In this document: positions 33,069 to 63,571 of the stretch, piece after piece
How the letters are laid out: each line of letters opens with the position of its first letter
Position numbering within the stretch: position 1 is the stretch's first letter
Assembly (NCBI RefSeq): GCF_013391475.1
Contig: NZ_JACBAZ010000004.1
Location: 620,001 to 684,000, forward strand
DNA length: 64,000 bases
Direction of reading: 5' to 3'
From: Oceaniferula marina
GTDB taxonomy: Bacteria; Verrucomicrobiota; Verrucomicrobiia; Verrucomicrobiales; Akkermansiaceae
Translations under genes and position numbers: made by a program
Notes under the pieces: model-generated
Told to the model about the DNA's origin: nothing
Seen by the model: the letters and a program-made list of their open reading frames with translations, nothing else
Database searches by the model: none

Positions 33069-36000
33069 TCACAGCCTCCGCCGGAACAGCAGGCTGACAG
33101 CCCCCAATCCAAGCAGTGCGAGAGAACCAGGTTCGGGAACAACGCTCAGGCTACCGGTTAATTCGGAATACTGGTAAGTCACTCCGTTTTCATCCAGTTG
33201 CCACAGTCCACTATTATCGGCAAATGTCCCACCGGTTAGACTCTTTACTCCAAAATTGGATCCATAACTTTCATCGAGATTGGCAACATCCACAATCTGC
33301 CAGCTATCACCCAAGTTGGTTCCGGCTGCCGCCAAATCAAATGTCAGCACCCCATCAAGAAACAAGCTCTCCGTTCCACCCACAGCACCTAAGAGCTGGT
33401 TGTTCACACCGCTGTTCCCAATATCGAACCGAAGCTCTGCCAAATTACCCAATTCGAACCGGCCATCGTTGATCGTCGTATCGCCACTGTACGTATTCAC
33501 TCCGTTCAAGCGCATGGTGCCGGCACCATCTTTCACCAACTGCTCCCCTCCAAAGTGAGCACCAATGGCGGAGTTCACCACGAGGTCCAAGGTGCCTAAT
33601 CCATCTTCGACATCAAAAGTATGCAAGCCACCCCCACTAGTTGTCATAGTCAAGTTGCTGACATTGATCTGTGATCCGGATGCGGCAGCCGTAACCACCA
33701 CCTTGTTTCCAGTATCGCGAAGCCTCCATTGGCCAGTGCCGTCAATCAGACCGGCCTCAGTGTCAAACCTCAGGGTTTTACCGGAAGCGAGGCTATTATC
33801 CCCACTGTTAAAGGTGATCGTGCCGCCATTGATCGTAACATCCGCCGCATGGTAACCGGCCCCCCGGTTTTGGCTGAACAGGAGCTGCGCCCCGCTATTC
33901 ACCGTCACCGTGTTGGTGGCAGAGCCGGCTCCCAAGGCCGAGGCCGAGCCGCTCGTGCCTGCGGCCGCTTCGTAAACACCCTCATCCACCGTCAAAGCTC
34001 CTGCAAAGGTTGCCGCTTTCTCCACCCTCATCGTGCCCGCACCCGACTTGAAAATACCCCCGTCAGCGCCCCCTGCCGAACCTTTATTGGCAAGCGTCAT
34101 GCTTACCGTCAGATCCGCGGCGCTGTCGCCGGTAGTGTCTGCAACGTCAAAGTTCTGCACCCCTTGCAAATGAATGCCGCCAGTGCCGTTCATCGTGGAA
34201 GCTCCGCTGCCGCCCACCGTCACTGTCGCCGCGCCGGCATCGGTATTGGCAAGCAAGGCATCGTAGCTGCCCACTCCGCGATCCGACGTCCAAGTCGCTC
34301 CGTCGTTGAGTGTCACATTACCAAAACGGCTGTCAAACGAGCTGTTCATCTGCAAAGTCCCTCCATTGACGGTAATCACCCGCCCGTCACCCATAGCTGA
34401 GCCATGACCTGCGGTAAAGACGTTGGTCGCACCCAACTCAAGCGTTGCTCCGGAATTCACCGTGAAGCTGGAACTGCTGCGCATTTCCGAACTGATCTTA
34501 AGCGTGCCGCCGTTAACCGTGGTGGTTCCCGCATAGGTTCCCGACCCGGTCATCTGCATGAGACCGTCGCCTTCTTTGATCATGTTTCTCGTTCCTCCGT
34601 CCTGCCTCAACGCGCCGCTGACCAGCAGATCCACCTCCGCAGCGCCGTCCGCCACTGTGAATGTGGTGTTGGTCTGTCTCAGCCGGCTGGCTGTGCTCAC
34701 CGTCGATGTTTCATCAGATGCCAGAGTGGTCAAAGAGGTACTGCCGTTGAAATAATCAAAACTATCGCCGGCCGATGATATGGTCCCGCCTTTCATCGTC
34801 AGTGCCATATTAGAAAAGGTTTGGTTTCCGCCACCATCATCAATATGCAAGGTTCCACCATTGATCGTGATCGAATCAATCCGGTTGCCGGTACCGTATC
34901 CGGTTGCGTCACCTGTGCTCAACTGCAAGGTTGCTCCGTCATTGATCGTCACCGCTCCGCGAAGCGTTCCAACACTGCCACCTCCGCCTGTCAAATTAAG
35001 CGTACCCCCATCGATCACGGTGCCGCCAGTATAAGTAGCGCGTGTTCCTATCGACACGGTGCCCTCACCAATTTTGCGCAACCCGTCAGAACCTGTAATC
35101 GCAGAATTCACCGTTAAAGAACTTGCTGCATCAGCCCGCACAATGCCCGAACCCGTCAGGTTAAGCGCATCGCCGGCCAGAGTGATGTCACCATCCTTCG
35201 CCCACACCGCATCGGCCGTCTGAGCACCACTCAGGGTAATGGTGTGAGTTCCTGTTCCATCGGTTCCTGCTGAAAACACAGCCGCATTGCCGGATGCCCA
35301 CGAACCCGTGGCCGCTTCCCCGGTTTCAGATGCCGACCAAAAGTTGTCCGTGCCCCAGGTGCCGCCAGTATCACCAGAACCAGTAGTCGTCCCATTGGTA
35401 TCCCAATAACTAAGTGTGCCTGAGTAAGCGTCCACCACCTGAAGACCCGCAATCGCAGCCCGACCTGGACTCGAGTTCAACGCAGACAAACTCACAGTCA
35501 CTTGATCTTCGATCTTCAAATAATGATCACTCTCGGTCAATGTGTCCGCATTGGTCCAGTTCACAGCCGACCAGGAATCATTGCTCCCTGACGCCAGAAT
35601 GGTCCCCCCGGAACCATCTCCCTTATAATAGGTTCCATTCACCGAAACAACCGACATGTTCGCCGGATTTCCTTGGTCCGTCGCGTGAATCACATAGATA
35701 TCGTTCAACAAATACGGCGAAGAAAAATCAACGTTCCAGCCGCCATCGCCATCATCCAAGTAGCCCGTGGTAAGATCTCCATTTTCGGAAGTGTCCGTCG
35801 CTCCAGTAGATCCCGATCTGTAAGTATTTCTGGCAGTCCAATTAACAGTGGCAAAAGTGGCCGCTCCGTTGCTATCAATTAAACCAGCCAAAGAACCACT
35901 GCCGTTGACCGCCGTATTATTCCACTTATCACCGTCAATTAAGACTGCCCCCGTCTTTTTAGAGGCTTCTTCAACAACGCTAGAATTGCGATCCGCCCCA

Positions 36001-36107
36001 AAATTTACACTGATGCTGTCCTGAGCGGAAACCCCTAGACTTGCCACCAGGGAAGCTCCGAAAATCAGCAAGGCAGAGCCATTTTTTTTCACGTATTGAT
36101 GATTCAT
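33069..36107 (-). CDS. PEP-CTERM autotransporter-repeat protein A
   Basis: About 1012 residues from MNHQYVKKNG; an in-frame GTG at 36128 is the alternative start. Signal peptide with GVSA/QDS cleavage. N-terminal module SISVNFGADR to about residue 235, shared with proteins B and G and ending SYWDTNG..TGSGDTGGTWGTDNFW. Then a passenger of autotransporter-type beta-strand repeats (motifs like GDGLMQMTGSGTYAGTTTVN), expected to fold as a beta-helix. One block (about 540-680, GHGSAMGDGRVITVNGG..IHLQGVQNF) is nearly the same as one in protein C. C-terminus VVPEPGSLALLGLGAVSLLFRRRL is a PEP-CTERM signal: PEP, membrane span, arginine cluster. Its last 130 residues differ from the other six genes. 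Function unknown, probably exported and surface-bound. Confidence 0.9.
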   Translation of the reverse strand: MNHQYVKKNGSALLIFGASLVASLGVSAQDSISVNFGADRNSSVVEEASKKTGAVLIDGDKWNNTAVNGSGSLAGLIDSNGAATFATVNWTARNTYRSGSTGATDTSENGDLTTGYLDDGDGGWNVDFSSPYLLNDIYVIHATDQGNPANMSVVSVNGTYYKGDGSGGTILASGSNDSWSAVNWTNADTLTESDHYLKIEDQVTVSLSALNSSPGRAAIAGLQVVDAYSGTLSYWDTNGTTTGSGDTGGTWGTDNFWSASETGEAATGSWASGNAAVFSAGTDGTGTHTITLSGAQTADAVWAKDGDITLAGDALNLTGSGIVRADAASSLTVNSAITGSDGLRKIGEGTVSIGTRATYTGGTVIDGGTLNLTGGGGSVGTLRGAVTINDGATLQLSTGDATGYGTGNRIDSITINGGTLHIDDGGGNQTFSNMALTMKGGTISSAGDSFDYFNGSTSLTTLASDETSTVSTASRLRQTNTTFTVADGAAEVDLLVSGALRQDGGTRNMIKEGDGLMQMTGSGTYAGTTTVNGGTLKISSEMRSSSSFTVNSGATLELGATNVFTAGHGSAMGDGRVITVNGGTLQMNSSFDSRFGNVTLNDGATWTSDRGVGSYDALLANTDAGAATVTVGGSGASTMNGTGGIHLQGVQNFDVADTTGDSAADLTVSMTLANKGSAGGADGGIFKSGAGTMRVEKAATFAGALTVDEGVYEAAAGTSGSASALGAGSATNTVTVNSGAQLLFSQNRGAGYHAADVTINGGTITFNSGDNSLASGKTLRFDTEAGLIDGTGQWRLRDTGNKVVVTAAASGSQINVSNLTMTTSGGGLHTFDVEDGLGTLDLVVNSAIGAHFGGEQLVKDGAGTMRLNGVNTYSGDTTINDGRFELGNLAELRFDIGNSGVNNQLLGAVGGTESLFLDGVLTFDLAAAGTNLGDSWQIVDVANLDESYGSNFGVKSLTGGTFADNSGLWQLDENGVTYQYSELTGSLSVVPEPGSLALLGLGAVSLLFRRRL

Positions 36108-36226
36108 TTGAGGACGATATCTATTCACTTCATGGGTAAACTTCGACTTGGAATTGACGGTCAGCCCCCTGACCAGCATCCAATTACACCTCTGCTCAAC
36201 AAACCAGATTCAGCCGGACCATCAAT

Positions 36227-36330: not shown

Positions 36331-39300
36331 TTATCGTTTTCTGCGTAGGATCAGAGCAAAGGCACCCAGACCAAACAAGGTGAAGGTTGAGGGCTCGGGA
36401 ATCACGGTCAAGGCAACCTGGCCACCGGTGGTGATATCCAGTTCGAAATCCAGACCCGCGGTCAAGGTCGGCAGCGTTCCCAGATCCAATCCGTTGTCGG
36501 TAAGCACCCCAGTGTATTCCATCAGCACCCAGCGATCACCGGATTGCGCATTGAGGAAATCATTTGTCACCAGTTCGGTCACATTGAGCGTGCCATCGAG
36601 TGTCAGATCGGTAATGCCGGCAACCAGGTCGTTGATATTGCTTCCGGTCGTCTGGTCACTGCCACTGAGTTCGAAATCGAGGAAAGAACCAGTTCCAAGC
36701 ATCAGACTGGAATTCAGGGTCAGGGTGCCGGCACTGCTTCCAGGTGCCAACACGGACCCTTGCGCAAGCTCGATCGGCCCGAGCACTTGGCCTGCACCTC
36801 CCAGCTTCTGGCCGTCCTGAAGCTCAAAGCCACCGCTGACAGCGGAAACATCAAACTGCGCTCCGGCCGCGACGTTGATCGAGCTCGACTGATGGATCGA
36901 GCCGCTCACCCCGAGAGCTAGCATGCCCGCGTTGATGTTGGTCGTGCCGCTATACCCGTTCGTTGCCTCAAGCAGCATTGTTCCAGCACCGGATTTAACC
37001 AGGGCACCGCTACCGTTAACTACTGCGGAAACCGTCAAATCAACCCCTGCGTCACTCGTCACATCCTCCACCGTAACATTGGCGTTATAAACTAAATTCA
37101 TACGGGCGGAAGCAATGCTACTCGCCGTGCTGCCGGTCACTTGAATGTCATTGTTGTTGCCTGCCCTCAGCTCATTCGTTCCCGTGACCTGGCCGCCGTT
37201 CATCGTCAACTTGCCAATATAGTTCTCACTGGCAAACTCGAGCACGCCGCCATTCAAGACAATCGAATCGCTGTTACCCGGGTAACCGCCAAAACCATGC
37301 GCAGCGGTAATACGCATCGTCGAGCCGTTTTCTACAGTCACCACGCCGGCGCCCGTCATCCGGTTGCCACCAAACGCACCACTCGCGAATTGAAGAACAC
37401 TTCCACCTTGCACCGTCACTTGATTAGGCATCGAGGTGCCGCCTGCAGTAGTACGCAGCGTACCGCCTCCGTCCACAACCAAGGTGCCGTTGCCGGTAAT
37501 AGCGCGTCCCATATCAGTTTGATCAGAGCGATTAAAGGTCAGGCTTCCCTCAAGTGCAATCGCACCACTACCACCCAGCGTCCCCGTCGTGCCGCCGTCG
37601 CCGACGACGACCGAGCCCTCCTGGATATCCACCGATCCCGTGAAGCTGTTGTCATTGAGCAAAGTCAGCGTGCCCGTGCCCGACTTGGTCAGCGAGCCAG
37701 CCCCCTCGATGCCGCTGCCAGCAAAGGTGTGATTGTTAGCCGAGGCCACTTCAACCGAGGCAGGGGTGATCGTGCCAGTCAATGACACCGTGCCCGAGGG
37801 GCTGTCGTTGTTGAATTTCACTACGTCGTATTCGTAGAAATTCGATGCCAGTCCGTCGGATTCAGTTTTCCAGCTGGTGGTGTTGTTTTCATCCCAGGTC
37901 TGGCCACCTGCACCGGTCCAAATCACGGCGTCAACCGAGTTAACCGTCAGCTTCACCTGGGTGTTGACCGCATCATCGCTCACCGTGAATCCATAATGCG
38001 GATTCGGGAGTTGCGCCGAAATACCAGCGACCCCGGCACCTTGAATGCTACCTTCATAATCAAACAAGACGAACTCATCGTTGATAGAAAGCTGACCAGC
38101 CGGAGCAATCGTCGCTGTATGCGTGCCGCCAGCAGCCACCGTAAACCCGTCCGTTCCTGTGATATCGATCCGGTCCACACTGCTGCCGCCTACACGGAAA
38201 GTGGACAACGAGCCGTCCGTCAAAGTCAGCGTGTCCATGGTGCCGACTCCGCCTGCGGCCACCGTGCCGCCCTGCAGCACCGCCCCGCTGTTAACCGTCA
38301 CCTTCGAGGCATTGCCTGCCACATGCAGCTTGCCAGCATTGACATCCGTCGTTCCGGTGTAGGTATTCGTGCCACCCAGCACCAGAGAACCGGCCCCGGT
38401 TTTGATCAAACCGCCCGAACCGCTCAACACACCCGTGAGAGCGACATCGTTGCCTCCAGTGTCAAACGTCACATCCCCATTGGTTCCCGTCAGCTCCATG
38501 TTGAGATTGGACGACCAACCCGCCGACCAGTCATGTGTCGCATCCGAAGAGGTTGTTCCTACCGTTCCACCACCCAGCTGGATTAAATAAGTTCCACCGG
38601 TGTTACCTGAACGAATGCCCCACTTGCCGATATTGAGGTTGCCACCCGTGAGAGTAAACGTGTCGGTTCCGCTGGTGTTGCCACGACCATCCATCACCAG
38701 TGATGTCGTATTAAGCGTGCCACCGGATAGGTGGTATTCGCCCGTGCCATCAATACCAAGAAAGAGGTTCGCCTGGCCTTCATTGGTAGGGCTGGTCACC
38801 GTGTCCGCTTGCGTCACCGTGCCGCCGCTCTGATTATAAACGGAAGTTTCACTTCCATAGTGACCGATCCGAATGTCATTGGTCACCGTCAGGTCCCCCG
38901 CCGAGTGATGCACCGTGTGGCCTTGCCCGCTCGCATTACCTAACTCAATATCCTCCAACACACCCGAGCCACCGGCACCATTGCCCAAGTTGATATATGT
39001 CGTTCCGCGGCGACCGTTGATACCACCAGCAGCATTTAAAACTGAACCGTTGTAGCGCACCGTACTGCCATTTTGAACGTAGAGATCGTTTCCAAAATCC
39101 GCATCACCATTGAACGTGGCCGTGCCCCCTGAAATCGTAAAACGACCGTCCACATCCACATCACCATTCACAATCAATGCACCACCATCACTTTTTGCTA
39201 AGCTGCCAGCTCCCGTGATATCACCTTGCACAGTCATGTCAAAACCCGTCCAAACATGAAACCCGCTTTCTCCGCCGGAAATGGTAACACCCCGGTTGGC

Positions 39301-41358
39301 ATCCAAGGTTATATTCGATCCGGACGAAGTCCCGCCCATCAGCTTGCCACCGCCGCTGAGCACGATGTCATCCGCCTGGGCAGTGCCGGGCGTTGCGCCC
39401 AGGCTCGTCTGATCCGCAATGCGCAATATGCCTCCACTCACAAGAGTTTTACCGCTCAAGCCCGTGTTGCCCGTGCTTTCAATAATTAAAGTACCGGCTC
39501 CGGTTTTCTCAAAGTCATAAGCACCGGTGATCGCACCCGTCACCTTGGCGGTTGATCCACTCCAGGTCGTCATCCGGCTGTCACTCTGTAAGGTCACCGT
39601 ACCGCTGACCGTTGTGCCATTTTCCAAACGCACCGCACCAAGCTGCCCGGACCCTTCCGTCGTGCCGTTGCCATTGAGGAAAAGATTGTTAGCCACTGTT
39701 CCTCCCGTGATCCACAGTTGGCCACCGTCCTTGACGGTGACCGCGCCGGTGCCGAGCCGGTTACCACCGGACATGTTTACATTGACACGTGCACCATCAA
39801 CACTAACAGCCCCCGAAAACCCACTATTGTCCCCAGTCAGGTTGATCTGGGAATTAGACGTTCCATCGCCAAGCAACTTAAAATCACCTGTGCCGCTAAC
39901 ATTGCTCCCAAAGCCGATCGTATTCGTCCGGTGGACCTCCAACACAGAGTTGTTAGTTATATTACCTGCCAGATTTCCTGTTTTACCGCCGCCTCCGATA
40001 TTCAGAGTGCCTGAAGAAATCGTCGTCGTACCGGCATATCCAGAACTGTCACCTGTCAGGCTCAGCTTGCCGGTACCGGATTTCACCAAGGTACCTGTTC
40101 CGGAAAATCGGCCGCCAAAGGTAGTGTCAGCATCTGAGCCACCAAGCGTCAGTTGGTTTACACCGAGCGCGAGTTCGCCGGCTCCCGCCAATCCTCCGAA
40201 ACTCTGGTCGCTGCCGAGGGTGGTGACGCCGTAAACCGAGGCCGTGCCAGTGATGCTGTTGCTCGAGTTGTTCAAAGTCACGTTGCCGTGCGTCTGCAGA
40301 TCCGTCGAGCTCAACTGCGAGTCCACCGTCAGCGACTGGTCGCCGCGCAAAATAGCATTGCCCGTCAGATTTAAAACCGAACCAGTCAGAGTAATGTTGC
40401 CGTCTTTCGCCCACACCGCGTCGGCCGTCTGATCCGCGCTCAGGGTGATCGTGTGCATGCCCGTGCCGTCATCACCGGCTGAAAAAACCGCCGCATTGCC
40501 GGATGTCCACGAACCCGTGGCCGTTTCCCCGGTTTCCGATGCCGTCCAAAAATTGTCCGTGCCCCAAGTGCCGCCCGCATCGCCTGAGCCCGCGGTCGCC
40601 CCATTGGTATCCCAGTAGCTCAGCGTGCCGGAATAAGCATTGACCACCTGCACACCGGAAATCGCCGCACGCGCCCCATTACGGTCCGCCGCCAACACCA
40701 CCGGCCCCTGCCCCTCGATTTTCAAATAATTGTCACTCTCGACCAAAGTATCCGCATTCGTCCAGTTGATCGCCGACCATGTGTCCGAGGCTCCGCTAGC
40801 CAGCACCGTGCCGCCGATTCCATCCCCCTCGTAATACGTGCCGTTCACCGACACCGCCGCCAAATTGACACTCTGGGACGTCGAGCCACCTTGATCTGTG
40901 CCGTGAATAATATAAATGTCATTCAGCAAAAACGGGCTGTTCAGGGTCACTGCCCAGCCAGCACCACCGTCATCCAGATAACCTTTGGTCAAGTCCCCGT
41001 TCTCAGAAGTCGCCGTCTCACCCGATGAACCCGACAAATACGTATTATTCGACGACCAAATGACGCTGGCCGTAGTCGCATTGCCATTGGCGTCCACCAA
41101 ACCTGTTAAGGTTCCGGAGCCACCCGATGCGTTATTCCAGTTGCTGCCCAGCACATCCACTGCACCCGCATACAACGAACTGTTATTCACAGCCCGCCGG
41201 TCCGAACCAAAATTAACACTGATGCTGTCCTGCGCCGCTACGCCAAGGCTCGTCACGAGAGAAATACTTGAAATGAGTAATGCGGTAACTGCTGGCCATT
41301 TGGCCGACTGATTTTTTTTCAATAGTTGATGATTCATGTGAGGACTCAGGTTATTCAT
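36331..41358 (-). CDS. PEP-CTERM autotransporter-repeat protein B
   Basis: 1675 residues (1668 if it starts at MNHQLLKK, 41337). Signal peptide to GVAA/QDS, then the SISVNFGSDR module as in A and G. A long beta-repeat passenger follows (units such as GTLVKSGTGKLSLTGDSSGY). Around residue 1130-1250 lies the spacer module WTGAGGQTWDENNTTSWKTE..FNND, also seen in G. The block GQLWITGGTVANNLFLNGNG (about 545) recurs in D and E. The C-terminal ~150 residues (GQKLGGAGQVLGPIELAQGS... to VIPEPSTFTLFGLGAFALIL + RRKR) are almost the same as in C, D and E. A PEP-CTERM tail implies processing by an exosortase encoded elsewhere. Confidence 0.9.
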   Translation of the reverse strand: MNNLSPHMNHQLLKKNQSAKWPAVTALLISSISLVTSLGVAAQDSISVNFGSDRRAVNNSSLYAGAVDVLGSNWNNASGGSGTLTGLVDANGNATTASVIWSSNNTYLSGSSGETATSENGDLTKGYLDDGGAGWAVTLNSPFLLNDIYIIHGTDQGGSTSQSVNLAAVSVNGTYYEGDGIGGTVLASGASDTWSAINWTNADTLVESDNYLKIEGQGPVVLAADRNGARAAISGVQVVNAYSGTLSYWDTNGATAGSGDAGGTWGTDNFWTASETGETATGSWTSGNAAVFSAGDDGTGMHTITLSADQTADAVWAKDGNITLTGSVLNLTGNAILRGDQSLTVDSQLSSTDLQTHGNVTLNNSSNSITGTASVYGVTTLGSDQSFGGLAGAGELALGVNQLTLGGSDADTTFGGRFSGTGTLVKSGTGKLSLTGDSSGYAGTTTISSGTLNIGGGGKTGNLAGNITNNSVLEVHRTNTIGFGSNVSGTGDFKLLGDGTSNSQINLTGDNSGFSGAVSVDGARVNVNMSGGNRLGTGAVTVKDGGQLWITGGTVANNLFLNGNGTTEGSGQLGAVRLENGTTVSGTVTLQSDSRMTTWSGSTAKVTGAITGAYDFEKTGAGTLIIESTGNTGLSGKTLVSGGILRIADQTSLGATPGTAQADDIVLSGGGKLMGGTSSGSNITLDANRGVTISGGESGFHVWTGFDMTVQGDITGAGSLAKSDGGALIVNGDVDVDGRFTISGGTATFNGDADFGNDLYVQNGSTVRYNGSVLNAAGGINGRRGTTYINLGNGAGGSGVLEDIELGNASGQGHTVHHSAGDLTVTNDIRIGHYGSETSVYNQSGGTVTQADTVTSPTNEGQANLFLGIDGTGEYHLSGGTLNTTSLVMDGRGNTSGTDTFTLTGGNLNIGKWGIRSGNTGGTYLIQLGGGTVGTTSSDATHDWSAGWSSNLNMELTGTNGDVTFDTGGNDVALTGVLSGSGGLIKTGAGSLVLGGTNTYTGTTDVNAGKLHVAGNASKVTVNSGAVLQGGTVAAGGVGTMDTLTLTDGSLSTFRVGGSSVDRIDITGTDGFTVAAGGTHTATIAPAGQLSINDEFVLFDYEGSIQGAGVAGISAQLPNPHYGFTVSDDAVNTQVKLTVNSVDAVIWTGAGGQTWDENNTTSWKTESDGLASNFYEYDVVKFNNDSPSGTVSLTGTITPASVEVASANNHTFAGSGIEGAGSLTKSGTGTLTLLNDNSFTGSVDIQEGSVVVGDGGTTGTLGGSGAIALEGSLTFNRSDQTDMGRAITGNGTLVVDGGGTLRTTAGGTSMPNQVTVQGGSVLQFASGAFGGNRMTGAGVVTVENGSTMRITAAHGFGGYPGNSDSIVLNGGVLEFASENYIGKLTMNGGQVTGTNELRAGNNNDIQVTGSTASSIASARMNLVYNANVTVEDVTSDAGVDLTVSAVVNGSGALVKSGAGTMLLEATNGYSGTTNINAGMLALGVSGSIHQSSSINVAAGAQFDVSAVSGGFELQDGQKLGGAGQVLGPIELAQGSVLAPGSSAGTLTLNSSLMLGTGSFLDFELSGSDQTTGSNINDLVAGITDLTLDGTLNVTELVTNDFLNAQSGDRWVLMEYTGVLTDNGLDLGTLPTLTAGLDFELDITTGGQVALTVIPEPSTFTLFGLGAFALILRRKR

Positions 41359-41507
41359 TTCATGGGCGCTGTATCAGCATGTCAAATCCGACTAGCCCCT
41401 AGTCAAACATCTGATACCGACTGAAGCTAAACACGTCGAAGATGCGTCGCCAATTCAAAAGTGCACAAAACTACACCCAATTATTAAAGATCAGTTGATT
41501 ATTTGTA

Positions 41508-41538
41508 ATTCTTCCCCGAGACGGACAAGGGGAAGAAT
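41508..41538 (-). terminator. Conserved 3' UTR hairpin after gene C
   Basis: ATTCTTCCCC, 11-nt loop, GGGGAAGAAT on the minus strand (perfect 10-bp stem), 23 bp after the stop. The surrounding ~70 bp recur after genes D and E. Confidence 0.7.
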
Positions 41539-41561
41539 GACTCAGCGAAGCTAAAGAACAA

Positions 41562-44500
41562 TTAGCGTTTTCTACGCAAAATCAGAGCGAAGGCACCCAG
41601 ACCAAACAAGGTAAAGGTTGAGGGCTCGGGAATCACCGTCAAGGCAACCTGACCACCAGTAGTGATATCCAGTTCGAAATCCAGACCCGCAGTCAAGGTC
41701 GGCAGCGTTCCCAGATCCAGTCCGTTGTCGGTAAGCCCCCCACTGTATTCCATCAGCACCCAGCGGTCACCGGATTGCGCATTGAGAAAATCATTTGTCA
41801 CCAGTTCGGTCACGTTCAAGGTACCGTCGAGTGTCAGATCGGTAATGCCGACAACCAGATCGTTGATATTGCTTCCGGTCGTCTGGTCACTACCACTGAG
41901 TTCGAAATCGAGGAAGGAGCCAGTTCCAAGCATCAGACTGGAATTCATAGTTAAGGTTCCGGCACTGCTTCCCGGTGCCAGCACGGACCCTTGAGCTAGC
42001 TCGATCGGTCCGAGCACTTGCCCCGCACCGCCCAGCGTCTGGCCATCCTGAAGTTCGAAGGTGGTCGATAAGCCGGAAACATCAAATTGCGCACCGGAGG
42101 CCACTTCGATTTCAACCGAATGGGCAATCGAGCCACTGACACCCAAACTCAACATCCCTTCTGCCACTGTCGTTTTACCTGTGTAGCTATTAATAGAATT
42201 GAGCTCCATGGTTCCAGCTCCTGTTTTATTAATACCTCCGGCTGCACCTCCGGAGATTCCAGGATTAGCCAGAACCATTGATACGTTCAAGTCAGCTCCA
42301 GCATCACCCGTTGTGTCAGCAACGGAAAAGTTCTGCACCCCTTGTAGGTGAATCCCCCCTGAACCATTCATGGTCGAAGCTCCGGAACCAGAAACGGTCA
42401 CCGTCGCTGCACCAGCAGATGTGTTGGCCAGCAAAACATCATACCCGCTCACAGCGCGATTCGATGTCCAAGTTGCCCCATCGTTTAGGGTAACATTACC
42501 AATCCGGGAATTCATCGAGCTATTCATGAGCCAAGTCCCATTATTCACAGTAATCACCCGAGAATCAGCAACGGCTACCCCATGCCCACCTACGAACATG
42601 TTAGTCGCTCCGGTTTCCAAAGTTACTCCGGCATTGACCGTAATACCCGACGTGTTACGCAGGGTCGCACTCACTTTAAGCATGCCGCCGTTAACGGTTG
42701 TGTGACCTTCATAGGAGCTATTCGAGGTAAGCGATAAAGTTCCAGCCCCAGCTTTTGCAAACCCACCGGTTCCTGAAAGACCTCCCGAAAGAATCACGTC
42801 ACCACCATCACCATTCCCATCCGCACCGGATGTAGTGGTGTCCCCTACCATCCCAGAGGTATCAATCGTTGACGTTCCCGTGAGGTTGATCGTTTGGGTA
42901 AAAGTTACATCATTATTGGTAACCAACCGAGTTCCCAACACGCCATCACCGAAAGCTTCGTAATCTGCATTATTGGTAGTGGCGGATCCTTGCTTGATGC
43001 CGATTCCCTTCGTCCACGAAACTGGACCAACACCACCACCACCCTGAGCAACGCGGGCATCGATAGTATACCAACCGTCCGTTGCTGCAGTGAAGGTTCC
43101 TGTAGCGACGGCGTTCCAAGTATTGTTATTAATAACTTCTGTGCCATCAATCGTGACGGAACCACCATCATCAAAGTTCTTTGAAAATGACCAATCACCT
43201 GCAGTAAGATAGATCTGACCATGATAGGCATGCGTCGTGCTACCGGGAACAACGTCCCCCGAAGTATTATGCATCGTGGAATAATCATTCGTCGTAACAT
43301 CTGTTGTCAAACTGCCACCAGTTAAAGTTTCACCACTGAGTGCGGTAAAATAGGAGCCCGAGTTATCAAATGCGAGCGTTCCTCCTTGCAAGCTTACCGC
43401 TGCGGTTCCCGTTGCATCAGTGTGTCCCAAAGTCAATGTTCCACCCGATGCAACTTCTACAGCTCCGGTAAAGTCAGCACTGGATCGGCGCAGTGTGACA
43501 TCCGAGCCGTTATCAGCACGTAAGGTTCCAGAACCATCAAGTAGCCTTGTTGGCATGGATGTCCCTGCCGAGCTTACCCTACCGTAGTTATTAACGCCTG
43601 ATAGGCTTAATGTTCCCTCATTAATCGTCAGTGTCCCTGTATGAGTATTGTTTCCAGCCAAGGTAAGAGTTCCTGTACCGGTTTTAGTCAATTTACCCGT
43701 TCCAGTTAATAGTCCCGAAAATGTTGTCGAGGTATTTAACGCTCCTACTGTCAATGTTTGACTACCAAGGTTCACGTTCCCACCATTGGCTCCGCCTCCA
43801 GATAAAGAACCCACCGAGAAATTATTTGATAAATTCAAAGCAACACCTGAAGTATCCGCCAAATTTAATGAAGCGGCAGAGGCATTGGATGTCCGAAAAA
43901 CTCGCATCGATCCTGAGTCTACCTGAATGTTACCTGCGGTCACCGTAGTATTCGCTATAGTGAACTCATTACTCCCAGTTTTGGTCAAGGTGTGCCCATC
44001 CAAGTCCAAAGTTGTGGCTCCATATCCGTTCGTCAGCAATGCCCAGTTGCCGGTGCCACCGATGCTGGCGTCAGCAGCCAAGGTGATGTTCGATGTTTGC
44101 GCCAAGCCGTTGCCGATGTTTCCACCGGTATTAGTAATCGCTCCCGTTCCTCCCACTCCTGTTCCCGCAATCGTATATCCATAGGTTGCGTCTCCGACGC
44201 CATTCAAATCAACCGCACCTCCCGCATTGATCGTGACTTGGTCAACCGGACGACCTGCACGGTAAGAACCAAATGCCCTTCCTGAAGCGAATTTAACCGT
44301 CCCCTGATTGATGACTGTATCCCCGGTAAAAGTATTCTGAGAATTAATCGTCAGCATTCCGCTGCCGTCTTTCACTAGTCCGGTCTCACCCGTGATCACC
44401 CCGCCATTACTGGTCAAGGTGTAATCATTCGCCGAGTTATTGAAAGTCACCGCAGCCGGTGCCACGTCTCCGGTGATCTGCACGTTAAAATTACCGGACG

Positions 44501-50953: not shown

Positions 50954-51105
50954 AAAAATAAAGGGTGAAAAAACAAATGCCAAAAACGATCAAACCCCTT
51001 AACCGTTCAGATAGCACTAATCAATTAAATCACAGCACCCTCTCGCATCAATGATATAATGCACAAAATTTTACTCAATCGGTAGTGATTGATCTATTAT
51101 TAGTC

Positions 51106-51136
51106 ATTCTTCCCCGAGACGGACAAGGGGAAGCAT
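51106..51136 (-). terminator. Conserved 3' UTR hairpin after gene E
   Basis: Third copy: ATGCTTCCCC, loop, GGGGAAGAAT on the minus strand, 23 bp after the stop of gene E, with the same flanks as at 41508 and 46865. Probably ends the G-F-E transcript. Confidence 0.65.
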
Positions 51137-51159
51137 GACTCAGCGAGGCTAAAGAACAA

Positions 51160-56029: not shown

Positions 56030-58954
56030 CTAATTTTTGCTGCGGCGCATGATCAGGGCGAAGGCACCCAGGCCAAACAAGGTGAAGGTTGAGGGCTCAG
56101 GGATGACGACTAGACCAACCTCTCCTCCACCAGAAAGATCCAACTCAAAGTCCAGACCTGCGGTCAAGGTAGGCAGTGTGCCCAGATCCAATCCGTTATC
56201 GGTCAGCGTGCCTGAGTATTCCAGCAGCACCCAGCGATCGCCAGCCTCGGCATTGAGGAAGTCATCCGCCACCAGTTCGGCCACGTTCAAGGTGCCGTCC
56301 AGTGTGAGATCCGTGACACCGGTCATCAAATCATTGATACCGGAGCCCGTGGTTTGATCGGAGCCACTGAGCTCAAAGTCCAAGGTCGATCCGACGCCAA
56401 GAATCATGGCAGAATCGAAGGTCATCGTGCCGGCACTGTTACCCGGGGCAATCACCGATCCGGATGCCAATTGGATAGGCCCAATCACTGCACCAGCGCC
56501 ACCAAGCGTTTGTCCATTCTGAAGCTCGAAGGTCGAACTCATGGCCGAGACATCGAAGGAGGCTCCAGCTTTCACTTCGATCTCAGAAGAGGCCGCAATC
56601 GAACCACTTCCCGCCAAACTGAGTATTCCCTCTGCAACCGTCGTATTCCCAGTGTAAGTATTAACTTTGGATAAGGTTAAGGTTCCGGTTCCCGTTTTAG
56701 TGAGAGCTCCCGTTCCCTTAACCACACTATCAATATTCACATTGACCGCAGACTCGGTGGACATGGTGCCACCTCCGTCATTGAGTTGAAACTCCTTGTA
56801 GGAACCAATATTGTCCTGATTGCCAACATCATTCCAGCCATTGCGGTACAAGAGTGTTCCACCATCAAAGGAGAATACGGTTCCAAAGTCGCCAATGCCA
56901 TCATCATGCAATTGATCCCGCTTACTCACAGCAACAGTTCCCTCATTAAAATTCCATGTGATATAATCAGCGTCTCCGTTCGACTTCACATCGCCCGTCA
57001 CTTCTAAAAGCCCAGCACCCAGTTTGGTGATCACACCGCCACCGGTAATACCATTTAAAGTGACATCATCTGATCTATTGTAGATGAGTGTGCCATTGTT
57101 AGTAACGGCACCTGAGCCCAAACCTCCGGAAGTGCCACCATCACCCGATTTTAAAGTTCCTGAACCAATCTCGACAGCCCCCGAATAAGCTGAGTTATTC
57201 CCTGTCAGCAACAAGGTTCCCACCCCATTTTTAGTGATCTTTTTATTTCCTGTAATTTGACCACTCAATAAAAAGTCAGTATCAGGGTCATTCACCGTAA
57301 TGGTTGAGTTTCCAACCGTATTATATTTCGTTGAAATTACCGACTGGACCGCTGAATCCTCAACCGTAATCACCGTGCCCCCTCCTCCTCTTGTCCGGAA
57401 ATCAGCATTATTGGATAAATAATCCTCAACCTTACCTCCCGTCATCCAAACATCATCAACGTAGGTTGAAGAGCGGAGTTGGAAAGATCCTCCATTCAAA
57501 GTCATATCCGCCGAAGTGCTGTCTCTTCCACCAAATGAATGTGCATTCCAGTTTACCACCACGGCCCCTTCATTCACCGTCAGCATGCCTGACCCTTGTG
57601 CTGGGTTTTGATACCATCCGCCACCAGACAAAATTACTTCGCCACTGTTCACGGTTACCCCTCCTGCAAAGGTATTTCTTCCGGAAAGATTCATCGTCCC
57701 CTCCCCATTGTATTCCATACCTCCCGCGCCACTAATAACGCCACCCAATCTGAGCGTCGTTCCCGAGGCGGCGCTAAAGGTGCGGTCACCACTCAGAGTT
57801 AAATTACTAACAATCACAACATCTCCACTCGCTGTGATTCCAGAGCCAATAGCAATACTTCCTCCTCCAATCGTATAGGCTGTCGTATTATTAAAAGTCA
57901 TTGATCCAACAGACACCTCTGAAACCAAATCAATCTCAAATACACTGGCGGAGTCATCAAAAATCACTGAATCAAGATTATAAAAGTTAGTTGCTGCTCC
58001 ATTATCCCAGTTGCTGGTTGTATTCACATCCCAATTGGCATCATTAGCCCCCGTCCATGTGACATGATCACCTGCCGCAAAAGTCAATGTGATGGCACTA
58101 CCCGTATCAGCCAGCACCGGGGCGTTACGGTACATCGAAGCACTGGCGGCATCGACTTGTAAATTAGCCACACTTCCGGTCGCAAGGTTAGCATAAGTGA
58201 GAACATCGACACTCCCCGTACTACCTGATGAAAAACTAACGGTGTTCGTCCCCACAAGATTGAGGTTCCCAACTCCCATCGCAGCACTAGTCGAAACGTC
58301 CGCAAACAAAGTGGCTCCCGCAGATGAACCTAAAGTTAAATCTCCAGCCAACTGCGCCTCACCACTCAGCGTTCCTGCGTCATTGACCACCACATTTCCG
58401 CCATCGAGGTCATTCAAGGTCAGCAAGCCTCCGGACAGCGTCATGGTTCCTGAATACGCACCACTTCCGTTCGTATTGATCACTGTGGTTCCGTCACCTG
58501 TAATGTTGACATCACCTGTTCCGGTGAAGCGAGTCCCTCCCAAGGTCAAAGTCCGGCCAGAGGCCAAGCTCCACTCTTGGTCGCCCGCTGCCACATAACC
58601 GACAATCTTGAGGTCGCGAACTGCAGCTGACATATCAATCCCGCCCTCTTTCGTAGACACAAAGTTATTATACGTCGTGTTATTCACCACGACATCCGTC
58701 GTCACGCTTACACCATCGAGACGAATCCCGTAATAGGTCAGACCTGCTCCGGTGCCCAAATTTCCAGTCTGCGTATAAGTATCATTGAATACGGCGGTGT
58801 CGGTATCCGCAGGAACAGAGCCTCCGACCCAAGAACTACCGGTCACCAGGCTGGTTCCATTATCATCTTTAACAACATCAGTTTGTGCATTCGCTTGCGC
58901 GACGGTAAGAGCCATGGATACCCCCATGCTCAAGGGAATGGTTATTTTTTTCAT
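56030..58954 (-). CDS. PEP-CTERM autotransporter-repeat protein F
   Basis: 974 residues, the shortest of the array. Signal peptide MKKITIPLSMGVSMALTVAQANA, then the same beginning as E (NGTSLVTGSSWVGGSVPADT). Spacer module WTGANDANWDVNTTSNWDNG near 300, and repeats through about 800. The C-terminal ~150 residues are a second version (GAVIGPIQLASGSVIAPGNS...DLMTGVTDLTLDGTLN) shared with G and distinct from B-E, ending VIPEPSTFTLFGLGAFALIM + RRSKN. It starts 75 bp after G stops with no hairpin between, so G, F and E are probably one operon. Confidence 0.9.
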   Translation of the reverse strand: MKKITIPLSMGVSMALTVAQANAQTDVVKDDNGTSLVTGSSWVGGSVPADTDTAVFNDTYTQTGNLGTGAGLTYYGIRLDGVSVTTDVVVNNTTYNNFVSTKEGGIDMSAAVRDLKIVGYVAAGDQEWSLASGRTLTLGGTRFTGTGDVNITGDGTTVINTNGSGAYSGTMTLSGGLLTLNDLDGGNVVVNDAGTLSGEAQLAGDLTLGSSAGATLFADVSTSAAMGVGNLNLVGTNTVSFSSGSTGSVDVLTYANLATGSVANLQVDAASASMYRNAPVLADTGSAITLTFAAGDHVTWTGANDANWDVNTTSNWDNGAATNFYNLDSVIFDDSASVFEIDLVSEVSVGSMTFNNTTAYTIGGGSIAIGSGITASGDVVIVSNLTLSGDRTFSAASGTTLRLGGVISGAGGMEYNGEGTMNLSGRNTFAGGVTVNSGEVILSGGGWYQNPAQGSGMLTVNEGAVVVNWNAHSFGGRDSTSADMTLNGGSFQLRSSTYVDDVWMTGGKVEDYLSNNADFRTRGGGGTVITVEDSAVQSVISTKYNTVGNSTITVNDPDTDFLLSGQITGNKKITKNGVGTLLLTGNNSAYSGAVEIGSGTLKSGDGGTSGGLGSGAVTNNGTLIYNRSDDVTLNGITGGGVITKLGAGLLEVTGDVKSNGDADYITWNFNEGTVAVSKRDQLHDDGIGDFGTVFSFDGGTLLYRNGWNDVGNQDNIGSYKEFQLNDGGGTMSTESAVNVNIDSVVKGTGALTKTGTGTLTLSKVNTYTGNTTVAEGILSLAGSGSIAASSEIEVKAGASFDVSAMSSTFELQNGQTLGGAGAVIGPIQLASGSVIAPGNSAGTMTFDSAMILGVGSTLDFELSGSDQTTGSGINDLMTGVTDLTLDGTLNVAELVADDFLNAEAGDRWVLLEYSGTLTDNGLDLGTLPTLTAGLDFELDLSGGGEVGLVVIPEPSTFTLFGLGAFALIMRRSKN

Positions 58955-59029: not shown

Positions 59030-62000
59030 TTAGCTTTTACGGCGGCGCATGATCAGAGCCAAGGCACCCAGCCCAAACAAGGTGAAGGTTGAGGGCTCAG
59101 GGATAACGACCAGGCCAACCTCACCTCCTCCAGAGAGGTCCAATTCGAAGTCAAGACCTGCGGTCAAAGTAGGCAGTGTTCCCAGATCCAATCCGTTATC
59201 GGTCAGCGTGCCTGAGTATTCCAGCAGCACCCAACGGTCGCCAGCCTCGGCATTGAGGAAATCATCCGCCACCAGTTCGGCCACGTTTAAGGTGCCGTCC
59301 AGTGTGAGATCCGTGATACCGGTCATCAAATCGTTGATACCCGAGCCAGTGGTTTGATCTGATCCACTGAGCTCAAAGTCCAAGGTCGATCCGACGCCAA
59401 GAATCATGGCAGAATCGAAGGTCATCGTGCCGGCACTGTTACCCGGGGCAATCACCGATCCGGATGCCAATTGGATAGGCCCGAGGAAAGCTCCGCTACC
59501 ACTGAGCTTCTGGGCATCCTGAAGGACAAAACCTCCGTCCACCGCAGAAACGTTAAACGAGGCCCCGCTTTGCACTGAGATCTCCGAGCTATTGGCAACA
59601 GACGCGTTGGTTCCCAGTTCCAGTGTTCCCTCATTCACTGTTATTTTTCCAGTGAATGTATTCACTGCTTCGAGAAGCATTTTACCTGCGCCAGATTTAT
59701 TGAAGCCACGGGTTCCGCTTTCTCCTATGACAGCGGAAACTGTCAGATCATTGTCGGCAGCACCATCCGCAACATTAAATGTCGGAGTGGCATGCAGCGT
59801 CATTTTCAGGCCACTGATTGTGGATCCTCCGGTCGACTCATTCACAGCCATGGTTCCACCTTGCAGACGTAGGTCCGTGTTCGTGACGTTGATCGTTCCG
59901 CCGTTCAAGGTGATATCACCGGCGCTCATATAGTGACCACCATTCACTGTCCACGTTCCACCTTGATTGATCACAAGGTCAGGTCTCTGGTATCCTCCAC
60001 CGAGGCCACCCAAACTGTGCGTTCCAGTAAGCAGGGTTCCACCGTCATTGATGGTGATCACTTTGTTAGCAGTGGAAAAATATCCAGTAGCCCACCCCCC
60101 TTCAAGCGCTTCATAGGTTCCGGAGTTGATGGTGATGTCCATGTTATTCCCAGCCTGTCCGGTGCGGAATGTCGAGCTACCGTTGTAAATCAACTCACCA
60201 CCACCGACCACACGGCGTCCCAGATTGACAGCATCGCTGCGGTTATAACTTAGGCTAGCCCCTGTCGCCAACGTGATATCACCGGATCCTCCGATGGCTC
60301 CGCTTGTCCCACCATTACCCACAACCACGGATCCTGCCTGAATATCAGTGGCTCCGCTATAAGTATTGTCATTCAGCAGGGTCAAGGTTCCGGTGCCGGC
60401 CTTTGTCAGTCCGCCAGCGCCACCAATTCCGGATCCGGTCAGGGTGAAATCATTGGTGCTATGGTCAAACGATGTGCTGGCAGTGAGAATATCACCCGTC
60501 AGGTTAATGGTTCCACCACTGCTATTGGCATCGTCGAACTTCACAATATCGTAATCGTAAAAATTCGTGGCCGTGTCTCCGGTCTCAGTTTTCCAACTTT
60601 CGGTGGTATCCACGTCCCATACGTTTCCACCGGCTCCAGTCCAAATGACCGAATCGATCGAATCCACGGTGAGGGTAACCCAGGTATTGAAGAAATCATT
60701 CACTACACTCACTCCGTAGTGAGGGTTAGGTAAGACGGCACTGATTCCATCACCTCCATCACCATTGATGAAGCCTTCATAATCATACAAAATAAATGAA
60801 TCGTTGATCGCAAGTTGCCCGGCAGGAATAATATTCACAGTATGTGAGCCATTGATCGTAAATTCGCCATCTCCTGTGACGTTGATTTGATCAGCAGTTC
60901 CACCTCCAACACGGAAATTGGCAACAGAGCCGCCATTTGTGGTCAAGGTTGTCAAGGTGGCCGCTCCAGGAACAGTGTCGGTCCCTCCTTGAATGGCTCC
61001 TCCATTATTAACAACAACACTCGAGCTTACATTGCCAGATACATTCAATGTGCCAGCATTCACGTTAATCGTTCCCGTGTGAGTATTTGCAGCATTGCTC
61101 AGAACCAAGGAACCATCACCGGCTTTATTGATCGTACCATCGCCAAACAAGACACCGGTCTGATTGACCGCAACTCCATTATCCACGTCAATCGTGCTCG
61201 TCGTCGATGTAACAGCCTCAACTCTGGATCCCCAATTAGAATTGGCAACACCTTTTAACACACCGCCACTGAGAGCAACTCCATCATTATCCCCCTGCCC
61301 GACAATCCCCAAGCTTCCAACTTCAACGACTCCCTGGCTCAGCAGAGTCAGAGTGGATGCCGATGATCCATTCCCTGCGCGATTGCGGTCAAACTGGAGA
61401 CCCGCGGCTTTGACGGTCGCGATTCCGGATCCACCACCTACGGTCATGTCACCTTCACCATCCCAACCCATCATAATATAACGAGCGGCGCCACCGTTTG
61501 AAGAGAGGGCAGTTGCATCAAGGGTTCCACCGCTGATATTGTAAGCTCTTCCTGTTCCGGACCAGTGCCCGATACGAATCCCGGCACTTCCTGCCTCCAT
61601 CGTGACGGAGCCACCAGTCTGGGTAATGGTTCCCGAGGTTCCGCCACCATTACCAATATTGAGATAACGGGCTGTCACATCGGCACCATCTTCGATAATC
61701 ACATTACCGTTAGCTAACTGCAATTCTCTGAATGTAGCTGTCGTTCCTGTACCATAAATCAGCTCACCTCCATAGGAACTCATAAGGCCTTGGACGCCAC
61801 TGCCGTTGGCATCCGTCGTCGTTCCAGCAAGGGTGGTATTGGTGATGGTCAGCTTATCAACGGCTGTTCCTCCATGTTGGCGCAAATGACTATTCACATC
61901 TCCGAAAGTTACACTCGAAGAATCCAAAACCACATCCTTCCCGCTGAGGCGATAACGCAAAGCCAGACCGTTCCGGTTCAGAGCAATACTTGAAGGGCTT

Positions 62001-63571
62001 CCGATCGAGCCCGCAGTTCCCACATCGCCGACCTGGAGGATATCATCTTCCACAGTCAACGTCCCTGTGACTGAAATGTCACTGAGAACGGTCAACTGGC
62101 CACCTCCCGTTTTAGAGAAGTTACCCGAGCCTGAGACATTCCAGTTCAGGTTACCTCCCCCATCTACATTCAGCGTTCCAGCATTCACGGTTGCTGCACC
62201 GGTGTAGCCAACGTTATTGCGAACAGTCAAAGTGCCTGTCCCGTTCTTGATGAGATTTCCACTACCGGTCAAGGCACCCAAATACGAGCTGTCCGTATTA
62301 TCGCTCCCCACGGTCAATGCGTTGGCTCCGATGGCCAAGGCCCCTGTGCCGGCCAAACTCCCGAGACTATGGTCAGCACCCAAGGTTGTGGTTCCGGTGA
62401 TCGTTGCCCGTCCACTCACGGTGTTGGCACTGTTCAAGGTAATGGCTCCCAGTGTATTTAAATCTGTGGCAGTCAAACCCGAATCAATGGTCAATGTACT
62501 GGCCCCGTCGGCCCGCAGCAGACCCGTCCCTCCCAGCGCGACCGTACCCCCTGTCAGAGTCACATCACCCTCTTGCACCCAAACCGCATCCACGCTCTCA
62601 GACCCACCAAGGGTCACGGTGTATGCTCCGGTAGCATCACCCCCAGCAGCAAAGACAGCGGCATGCCCACCTGTCCAGTTCGACGTCGCAGCCTCGCCCG
62701 TCTCACTGGCCGACCAATTAGCATCCGACCAATTGCCACTCGGAGTCGCTCCACCTGCACCGGCTGTCGCGCCATTGGTATCCCAATAACTCAACGTTCC
62801 CGTGTAGGCATTTACTACTTGAACCCCCGCAATGGCAGCGCGCGCCGAGTTCCGATCGGCAGCCAACACCACGGACACCTGATCCTCCACTTTTAAATAA
62901 TGATCACTTTCCAGCAAGGCATCCGCATTGGTCCAGTTCACTCCAGACCACGTATCCGCACTACCTGAGGCCAAAACCGTAGACCCTGCGCCATCTCCTT
63001 TGTAATAAGTTCCATTCACAGAAACCGCAGCATAATTGGCAGCCTGCGATGTCCCTCCACCTTGGTCCGTTGCCTGAATCATATAAATATCATTCAACAA
63101 ATACGGTGAATCCAACGTCACGGACCAACCTGCACCACCATCATCCAAATAACCAGTGGTCAAATCTCCATTCTCCGATGTTGCGGTCGCCCCCGTGGAA
63201 CCTGACAAATAACTGTTATTCGCGGTCCAGGTCACACTGGCTCCAGTCACCACCCCCGTACTATCGACCAAACTACCTAAGGTCCCCCCGCCGTTCACCG
63301 TAGTATTGTTCCAATAATCACCTTGAACAAGAACCGCTCCGGATGTCTTCCCGGCTTCATTAATGGGACCACCTCGGTCTGCTCCAAAGTTTACACTGAT
63401 GCTTTGAGCTGATGTCTGACTCGTCATCACGATTCCCGCCATACCCATCAGCATGCAAGATTTCATCAATCGAGTCACCATCGAGTGTCTCTCATTTGCC
63501 ATACCTGACTCTGTCACAAAGGCTGCATTACGGTCCTTCTTGATATCTATATTCTTTTTCATCGGATTCAT
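59030..63571 (-). CDS. PEP-CTERM autotransporter-repeat protein G
   Basis: 1513 residues from the ATG at 63571. The signal peptide proper (MVTRLMKSCMLMGMAGIVMT, cleavage TSA/QSI) is preceded by ~30 extra residues, so ATG 63502 or 63481 are possible starts. The SISVNFGADRGGPINEAG module is that of A and B. Repeats then include a long unique part with few repeats (about 560-840, e.g. GGSVTMEAGSAGIRIGHWSG). The spacer module WTGAGGNVWDVDTTESWKTE near 980 is shared with B. The C-terminal module is the F type, with VIPEPSTFTLFGLGALALIM + RRRKS. First gene of the G-F-E group, with its own likely promoter. Confidence 0.9.
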   Translation of the reverse strand: MNPMKKNIDIKKDRNAAFVTESGMANERHSMVTRLMKSCMLMGMAGIVMTSQTSAQSISVNFGADRGGPINEAGKTSGAVLVQGDYWNNTTVNGGGTLGSLVDSTGVVTGASVTWTANNSYLSGSTGATATSENGDLTTGYLDDGGAGWSVTLDSPYLLNDIYMIQATDQGGGTSQAANYAAVSVNGTYYKGDGAGSTVLASGSADTWSGVNWTNADALLESDHYLKVEDQVSVVLAADRNSARAAIAGVQVVNAYTGTLSYWDTNGATAGAGGATPSGNWSDANWSASETGEAATSNWTGGHAAVFAAGGDATGAYTVTLGGSESVDAVWVQEGDVTLTGGTVALGGTGLLRADGASTLTIDSGLTATDLNTLGAITLNSANTVSGRATITGTTTLGADHSLGSLAGTGALAIGANALTVGSDNTDSSYLGALTGSGNLIKNGTGTLTVRNNVGYTGAATVNAGTLNVDGGGNLNWNVSGSGNFSKTGGGQLTVLSDISVTGTLTVEDDILQVGDVGTAGSIGSPSSIALNRNGLALRYRLSGKDVVLDSSSVTFGDVNSHLRQHGGTAVDKLTITNTTLAGTTTDANGSGVQGLMSSYGGELIYGTGTTATFRELQLANGNVIIEDGADVTARYLNIGNGGGTSGTITQTGGSVTMEAGSAGIRIGHWSGTGRAYNISGGTLDATALSSNGGAARYIMMGWDGEGDMTVGGGSGIATVKAAGLQFDRNRAGNGSSASTLTLLSQGVVEVGSLGIVGQGDNDGVALSGGVLKGVANSNWGSRVEAVTSTTSTIDVDNGVAVNQTGVLFGDGTINKAGDGSLVLSNAANTHTGTINVNAGTLNVSGNVSSSVVVNNGGAIQGGTDTVPGAATLTTLTTNGGSVANFRVGGGTADQINVTGDGEFTINGSHTVNIIPAGQLAINDSFILYDYEGFINGDGGDGISAVLPNPHYGVSVVNDFFNTWVTLTVDSIDSVIWTGAGGNVWDVDTTESWKTETGDTATNFYDYDIVKFDDANSSGGTINLTGDILTASTSFDHSTNDFTLTGSGIGGAGGLTKAGTGTLTLLNDNTYSGATDIQAGSVVVGNGGTSGAIGGSGDITLATGASLSYNRSDAVNLGRRVVGGGELIYNGSSTFRTGQAGNNMDITINSGTYEALEGGWATGYFSTANKVITINDGGTLLTGTHSLGGLGGGYQRPDLVINQGGTWTVNGGHYMSAGDITLNGGTINVTNTDLRLQGGTMAVNESTGGSTISGLKMTLHATPTFNVADGAADNDLTVSAVIGESGTRGFNKSGAGKMLLEAVNTFTGKITVNEGTLELGTNASVANSSEISVQSGASFNVSAVDGGFVLQDAQKLSGSGAFLGPIQLASGSVIAPGNSAGTMTFDSAMILGVGSTLDFELSGSDQTTGSGINDLMTGITDLTLDGTLNVAELVADDFLNAEAGDRWVLLEYSGTLTDNGLDLGTLPTLTAGLDFELDLSGGGEVGLVVIPEPSTFTLFGLGALALIMRRRKS

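What the first reader, a model, noticed from the sequence alone, without database searches (positions are those of the whole stretch)
33069..63571. Seven tandem giant PEP-CTERM proteins built as mosaics of swapped modules
Seven consecutive minus-strand genes share pieces in combinations that do not follow one tree. A/B/G share the SISVNFG N-terminal module, C/D the YWDG/TWDN start, E/F another start. The C-terminus is one type in B/C/D/E, a second in F/G and a third in A. Internal blocks link A with C, B with D and E, and B with G. Seen directly by comparing the translations. The inference is in-place diversification by recombination of a surface-protein family, a potential antigen- or glycan-recognition repertoire.
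Basis: partly seen in the sequence, partly recalled or inferred. Interest (0 to 1): 0.75.

Follow-up and report, generated by a model that had tools for sequence, protein, structure and literature searches.

The report
Recombining array of giant surface proteins
Seven neighbouring genes for very long beta-helix surface proteins in an Akkermansiaceae bacterium have repeatedly copied short pieces from one another, mainly keeping their ends alike while their older middles differ; the protein family is known and widespread, but the copying tracts are unusually clear.

Summary
Seven intact minus-strand genes (974-1718 aa) each carry PATR beta-strand repeats and a C-terminal PEP-CTERM tail, and they are mosaics. 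E and F share N-terminal and middle parts (dS 1.4-1.9), yet an E+F clade at the C-terminus is rejected (AU p 1e-4 protein, 2e-42 DNA). F/G and B/C/D/E C-termini have dS 0.21-0.39. Along B, the nearest relative alternates between array members and a gene of another genus. A 225-nt E/F tract (44/48 four-fold sites identical; 74/211 elsewhere) with diverged flanks on both sides points to gene conversion.

The youngest exchanges homogenise; they do not create variety. The B and G bodies are older than the array, since relatives in other genera carry them. All seven genes are intact, so this is not a silent-cassette system. The array is absent from all 13 congeners held, and hisH and ilvC, which flank it, lie 74 bp apart in one of them. 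No sister strain was available.

Best reading: secreted, exosortase-sorted beta-helix adhesins or matrix proteins in a lineage-specific island under local gene conversion. The A/B/G head is possibly a malectin/CBM-like glycan-binding fold (low-confidence model).

The parts
33069..36179 (-). gene A, 1036 aa: signal peptide, SISVNFG module, PATR repeats, own C-terminus with PEP-CTERM
36331..41358 (-). gene B, 1675 aa: SISVNFG module, long PATR body related to genes of other genera, type-1 C-terminus
41562..46718 (-). gene C, 1718 aa: YWDG start, PATR body, block shared with A, type-1 C-terminus
46919..50983 (-). gene D, 1354 aa as listed from TTG (true start probably the ATG 10 codons in): TWDN start, type-1 C-terminus
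51160..55959 (-). gene E, 1599 aa: E/F start, six PATR matches, type-1 C-terminus
56030..58954 (-). gene F, 974 aa: like E but without 623 aa between two repeat copies; type-2 C-terminus like G
59030..63571 (-). gene G, 1513 aa: SISVNFG module, body related to Roseibacillus and another genus, type-2 C-terminus
35391..36017 (-). SISVNFG head module of A (about 210 aa, no Pfam family, beta-sandwich model)
40600..41226 (-). SISVNFG head module of B
62771..63403 (-). SISVNFG head module of G
36334..36888 (-). C-terminal module of B (type 1)
41565..42119 (-). C-terminal module of C (type 1)
46922..47476 (-). C-terminal module of D (type 1)
51163..51717 (-). C-terminal module of E (type 1); D/E pair dS 0.21, longest exact D/E repeat 176 nt
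56036..56590 (-). C-terminal module of F (type 2); F/G dS 0.25
59036..59590 (-). C-terminal module of G (type 2)
41498..41561 (-). 3' non-coding tract after C shared with D and E (87-95% over about 64 nt, contains a CTTCCCC/GGGGAAG hairpin)
46855..46918 (-). the same 3' non-coding tract after D
51096..51159 (-). the same 3' non-coding tract after E
55432..55656 (-). gene-conversion tract in E (codons 102-176), 96-99% identical to F, with lower identity falling to 60-79% on either side
58421..58645 (-). gene-conversion tract in F (codons 104-178), partner of the tract in E
52261..54129 (-). part of E missing from F (623 aa); both edges lie in copies of one GDGG repeat and F keeps a single copy
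37594..38481 (-). internal block of B (aa 960-1255) that groups with G against B's relatives in other genera
60302..61174 (-). partner block in G (about aa 800-1090)
34126..34537 (-). internal block of A shared with C (70% DNA, dS 1.65)
42304..42715 (-). partner block in C
39388..39966 (-). internal block of B (aa 465-657) shared with E and with the unlinked eighth gene H
31100..31717 (+). hisH, left flank of the insertion; adjacent to ilvC in sister species
31836..32681 (+). 281-aa gene of unknown family on the array side of the insertion point; no match in the sisters' hisH-ilvC gap

Best explanation
The locus is a lineage-specific island of seven giant surface or matrix proteins, lying between hisH and ilvC. 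Shown: each gene is intact and encodes PATR beta-strand repeats and a C-terminal module ending in PEP-CTERM, and the genome has one exosortase. Visible by eye: an N-terminal signal peptide on each. Shown: neighbouring genes have exchanged segments. Short tracts (hundreds of nt) homogenised the C-terminal modules in two groups and one stretch of E/F, while older exchanges joined internal blocks and a repeat-to-repeat event separates E from F. Inferred: gene conversion is the main process, because the E/F tract has diverged sequence on both sides. Inferred: the proteins are exported by Sec, held by the PEP-CTERM helix, cleaved by the exosortase and released to the outer surface or exopolysaccharide as long beta-helical fibres. 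Different heads and middles would set what they bind, and the shared end is the folding and sorting interface, which conversion keeps alike. A role as adhesins or matrix proteins is the likeliest.
For: Families; exosortase. Genes intact. Tree conflict at the C-terminus: E+F rejected p 1.2e-4 (protein) and 1.6e-42 (DNA), B+G rejected p 6.5e-4. Max-chi for F between E and G: 151:31 against 9:115 informative sites, p at the floor 1/2001. Synonymous contrast: E/F dS 1.40, 1.88 and 1.85 across the gene, but F/G 0.25, D/E 0.21, C/E 0.34 and B/E 0.39 at the C-terminus. E/F tract of 225 nt. Nearest relative alternating along B, with B+G starred 100/99 and B+G063a rejected (p 0.0002) in aa 960-1255, and B+G rejected (p 0.015) in aa 1256-1445. 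Shared 3' non-coding tract after C/D/E that ends after about 64 nt. Repeat-edge indel E/F. Empty site in sisters, array absent in 13 congeners. Passenger fold: weak sequence matches to the IcsA autotransporter and an extracellular serine protease; Foldseek top rows are autotransporter passengers, though not significant. PEP-CTERM proteins in flocs and exosortase in biofilm: PMC9850573, PMC12188702.
Against: No strain-level comparison, so rate and recency are unknown; dS 0.2-0.4 is not very recent. The head-module tree is unresolved: A+B+G is not rejected, but B+G063a is not rejected either (p 0.12). Structure models have low confidence (pLDDT 66 and 57). Nothing here shows adhesion, and surface or matrix location rests on the PEP-CTERM literature. 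Misassembly of a repetitive locus in an 88-contig assembly cannot be fully excluded, although no two copies are identical.
Confidence: 0.72

Rival explanations
1. Simple old tandem duplication with strong purifying selection on the C-terminus; the conflict is an artefact of unequal constraint.
For: The C-terminal module is conserved in protein (96-99% aa inside types). Tandem order partly matches similarity: neighbours A/B, C/D, E/F share starts.
Against: Synonymous sites and the non-coding 3' tract are also alike. The same region is near saturation between E and F (dS 1.85) but low between F and G (0.25). AU tests reject E+F and B+G at the C-terminus. The E/F 225-nt tract lies inside diverged sequence.
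Confidence: 0.05
2. A dedicated diversification system: recombination shuffles modules in place to make a variable surface repertoire that evades predators, phages or immunity.
For: Mosaic modules, one repeat-edge length change, and alternative heads and tails in arrays of other genera.
Against: Recent tracts homogenise. Bodies of B and G predate the array. No silent cassettes: all seven genes have their own start and stop. Internal repeats in E are only about 42-73% alike in DNA, so no slippage-prone perfect repeats. No strain data.
Confidence: 0.13
3. Unequal crossing-over between tandem copies, making fused genes, produced the mosaics, with little gene conversion.
For: Tandem orientation, C/D/E 3' flank carried along, E/F repeat-to-repeat deletion or expansion.
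Against: The E/F tract has diverged sequence on both sides, and B is switched several times; a single crossover would carry everything downstream.
Confidence: 0.1

Closest known systems
PATR / autotransporter-associated beta-strand repeat proteins (PF12951, TIGR02601)
   Same: All seven genes match above the curated cut-offs, with repeats along a long beta-rich passenger; such proteins are common in this order (37 of 58 genomes).
   Different: No autotransporter barrel; the C-terminus is PEP-CTERM instead.
PEP-CTERM/exosortase sorting system (PF07589, PF09721; Haft 2006, PMC1569441)
   Same: PEP motif, hydrophobic helix, basic end; one exosortase and at least 150 PEP-CTERM sites in the genome.
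   Different: Unusually long targets, in one tandem array that exchanges segments.
Monomeric autotransporter adhesins (antigen 43, IcsA, Fap2)
   Same: Weak sequence match of E to IcsA; top structural rows are passengers of this kind (not significant).
   Different: Type V secretion barrel (PF03797) not found.
Clustered spidroin genes in Argiope (PMC9779670)
   Same: Analogy only: a cluster of repetitive structural proteins diversifying and homogenising, with evidence of intergenic conversion.
   Different: Unrelated proteins, eukaryote.
Periscope proteins (PMC9704523)
   Same: Length change between relatives through repeats (E against F).
   Different: Repeats here are not near-identical, and variation within a population is not shown.

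Membership tests
PATR repeat proteins (PF12951/TIGR02601) | Several repeat matches over the curated cut-off | tested here: met
   bits 53-129 against cut-off 27 (Pfam)
PEP-CTERM proteins | C-terminal PEP motif, hydrophobic helix, basic cluster over cut-off | tested here: met
   seven of seven
PEP-CTERM proteins | Exosortase encoded in the same genome | tested here: met
   one PF09721 match, E 3e-41
PEP-CTERM proteins | N-terminal signal peptide | tested here: inconclusive
   Seen by eye in all seven translations; no signal-peptide predictor run
PEP-CTERM proteins | Cleavage and export by the exosortase | not testable with these tools
   needs an experiment
Type Va autotransporters | C-terminal autotransporter beta-barrel (PF03797) | tested here: not met
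   no such match in any of the seven
Silent-cassette antigenic variation | One expressed copy and incomplete silent copies | tested here: not met
   seven complete genes
Periscope proteins | Near-identical tandem repeats changing in number within a population | tested here: not met
   repeat copies in E about 42-73% alike in DNA; change within a population could not be tested
Malectin/CBM35-like glycan-binding domains (head of A/B/G) | Beta-sandwich fold of that group | tested here: inconclusive
   pLDDT 66; best VIA Z 9.5, rmsd 3.9, 140 aligned; no Foldseek E under 0.001; no Pfam match
Malectin/CBM35-like glycan-binding domains (head of A/B/G) | Glycan binding | not testable with these tools
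   needs binding assays

The most novel reading that the evidence does not exclude
In Akkermansiaceae, arrays of giant PATR proteins are a recombining repertoire in which heads, beta-helical middles and interchangeable C-terminal tails (PEP-CTERM or a TSP3-like tail with no Pfam or NCBIfam model) are exchanged by gene conversion fast enough to vary binding and sorting between strains.
Probability: 0.13. Interest if true: 0.6.

Novelty: new member of a known kind. Interest (0 to 1): 0.4.

Why it matters
PEP-CTERM proteins are numerous in Verrucomicrobiota but few have a known function, and how such families evolve is little described. This locus gives clear exchange tracts, an empty site in sister species and external relatives, so one can separate old diversity from later homogenisation. 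It suggests that the sorting end evolves in concert while the passengers diverge. If strain data showed ongoing exchange, it would be a surface-repertoire system in relatives of a gut symbiont; as it stands it is a clear example of known processes.

Tried and rejected
Array as antigenic variation with silent cassettes: rejected, all genes are complete. Conserved C-terminus by selection alone: rejected on synonymous sites. Array ancestral to the whole genus: not favoured, since no copy was found in 13 congeners and hisH-ilvC are adjacent in one sister (G009). Tree of the SISVNFG module as evidence for homogenised heads: inconclusive, so not claimed. Foreign base composition: GC 49-56% in the array against 48-55% in the rest of the window, no sharp step. 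Promoter and terminator scan (50500-64000): about as many sites as shuffles. Foldseek of the head and of F gave no hit under E 0.001. One scan of genome contigs with the head module gave only five relatives. Phage, plasmid and E. coli collections were not searched, as not relevant. Literature searches found no paper on this array type in the held library.
Full report
WHAT IS THERE. The window holds seven consecutive minus-strand ORFs at the stated coordinates. Every one has PATR repeats and PEP-CTERM above the curated cut-offs, and by eye each begins with a signal peptide. The genome (G000, 5.07 Mb, 88 contigs) has at least 150 PEP-CTERM matches (the scoring limit was reached), one exosortase, and PATR repeats almost only in these seven genes plus an unlinked gene H (C2, L020:3852-6989, 1045 aa) and one weak match on C7.

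MOSAIC, TESTED. DNA comparison gives E/F 72% over 1.88 kb, C-termini 89-93% in B/C/D/E, 94% in F/G and 71-74% between the two types. For F between E and G, the max-chi break has 151:31 against 9:115 sites, p at the permutation floor. Synonymous divergence of E/F is 1.40 (N part), 1.88 (middle) and 1.85 (C-terminus), but F/G is 0.25, D/E 0.21, C/E 0.34 and B/E 0.39 at the C-terminus, with bootstrap intervals far apart. At the C-terminus the AU test rejects E+F (p 1.2e-4 protein, 1.6e-42 DNA) and B+G (p 6.5e-4), and B-G group together against H and a relative in another genus. C/D/E also share about 64 nt after the stop. E and F have a 225-nt tract with 96-99% identity, where 44 of 48 four-fold sites agree against 74 of 211 in the rest of the compared part (sums taken).

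OUTSIDE RELATIVES. B-like genes occur in other genera: G063a 47% over 1617 aa, G063b 48% over 1244 aa, G131 40% over 1666 aa. G-like genes occur in R. ishigakijimensis (41% over 1291 aa) and SS_bin_91 (39% over 1354 aa). Along B the nearest relative changes from A/G (aa 1-300) to mostly G063 (480-950), G (960-1250), G063a (1260-1440) and C/D/E (to the end). Trees agree: in aa 960-1255 B+G is 100/99 and B+G063a is rejected (p 0.0002); in aa 1256-1445 B+G is rejected (p 0.015) and B joins G063a (88/70, not starred). The last of these trees also pairs A with C (99/100) and E/F with G063b (100/99). So much of the bodies is old, while ends and some blocks were exchanged inside the array. The head-module tree is not resolved.

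LENGTH CHANGE. F lacks one 623-aa piece of E. Both edges lie in copies of the same GDGG repeat, and F has one copy, whose second half reads like the last E copy. This fits recombination between repeats; the direction is not known.

LOCUS HISTORY. HisH (window 31100-31717) and ilvC (ends at window 63792) are neighbours in sister species: 74 bp apart in G009, about 1.5 kb with other sequence in G003, G005 and G010. None of 13 congeners holds the array's C-terminal module beyond weak matches or the head module. The array is therefore lineage-specific among the genomes held; gain here is simpler than repeated loss.

FUNCTION. PATR matches, a weak sequence match of E to IcsA and to an extracellular serine protease, and passenger folds at the top of a non-significant Foldseek list point to a beta-helical passenger. 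The head of A/B/G has no Pfam family. Its model (pLDDT 66) resembles malectin-like and CBM35/32 sandwiches (best VIA Z 9.5, rmsd 3.9, 140 aligned; no Foldseek E under 0.001), a lead for glycan binding, no more. A short ORF with this module exists elsewhere in the genome (C2:164853; a PEP-CTERM match lies in it). A PEP-CTERM protein has been tied to floc formation and an exosortase to biofilm formation (PMC9850573, PMC12188702), hence adhesin or matrix protein as the likeliest role (inference).

GENERALITY. In another genus of the family (G039) three tandem PATR genes share 77-84% DNA over 2 kb at the start but end in different tails: two have a TSP3-like tail and one PEP-CTERM. That tail has no Pfam or NCBIfam model over its cut-off and is found in 45 of 58 genomes. 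Module and tail exchange thus seems to be a general habit of the group, which makes the present array a good example and not a new kind.

VERDICT. Observation confirmed; recombination supported; 'diversifying antigen or glycan repertoire' not shown, and the recent events are mostly homogenising.

Noticed in passing
L077:12644-15703 and 15654-18368; L058, L061, L064 C-termini: A second C-terminal tail of about 125 aa (TSP3-like D-D-D-G-N-E motif, F-Y-RR, LF-RV end) without a Pfam or NCBIfam model replaces PEP-CTERM on closely related PATR genes; 45 of 58 genomes have it, up to 60 matches per genome. It may be an undescribed sorting or attachment tail.
   Followed up: partly
G000:C2:948851-951988 (L020:3852-6989): Unlinked eighth PATR/PEP-CTERM gene H contains an E/F-like start, a block like that of A/C and the B/E block, so the block set is not confined to the array.
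   Followed up: partly
G000:C2:164853-165302: Small PEP-CTERM ORF (274 aa) that holds most of the SISVNFG head module; similar 243-303 aa ORFs in other genera, so the head also exists as a standalone protein.
   Followed up: no
L077, L078, L080 (other genera): Further tandem PATR genes with shared starts or middles and different ends, and single ORFs of up to 7650 aa (G055).
   Followed up: partly
31836-32681: A 281-aa, Q-rich protein with an N-terminal hydrophobic stretch and no known family lies between hisH and the array and has no match in the sisters' hisH-ilvC gap.
   Followed up: no
L028, L029, L030 (G005, G003, G010): hisH-ilvC gap: In these sisters the same intergenic spot holds about 1.5 kb of other sequence, so it may be a recurrent insertion site.
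   Followed up: no
46919-50983: Gene D is listed from TTG; the ATG ten codons further in fits a signal peptide better.
   Followed up: no
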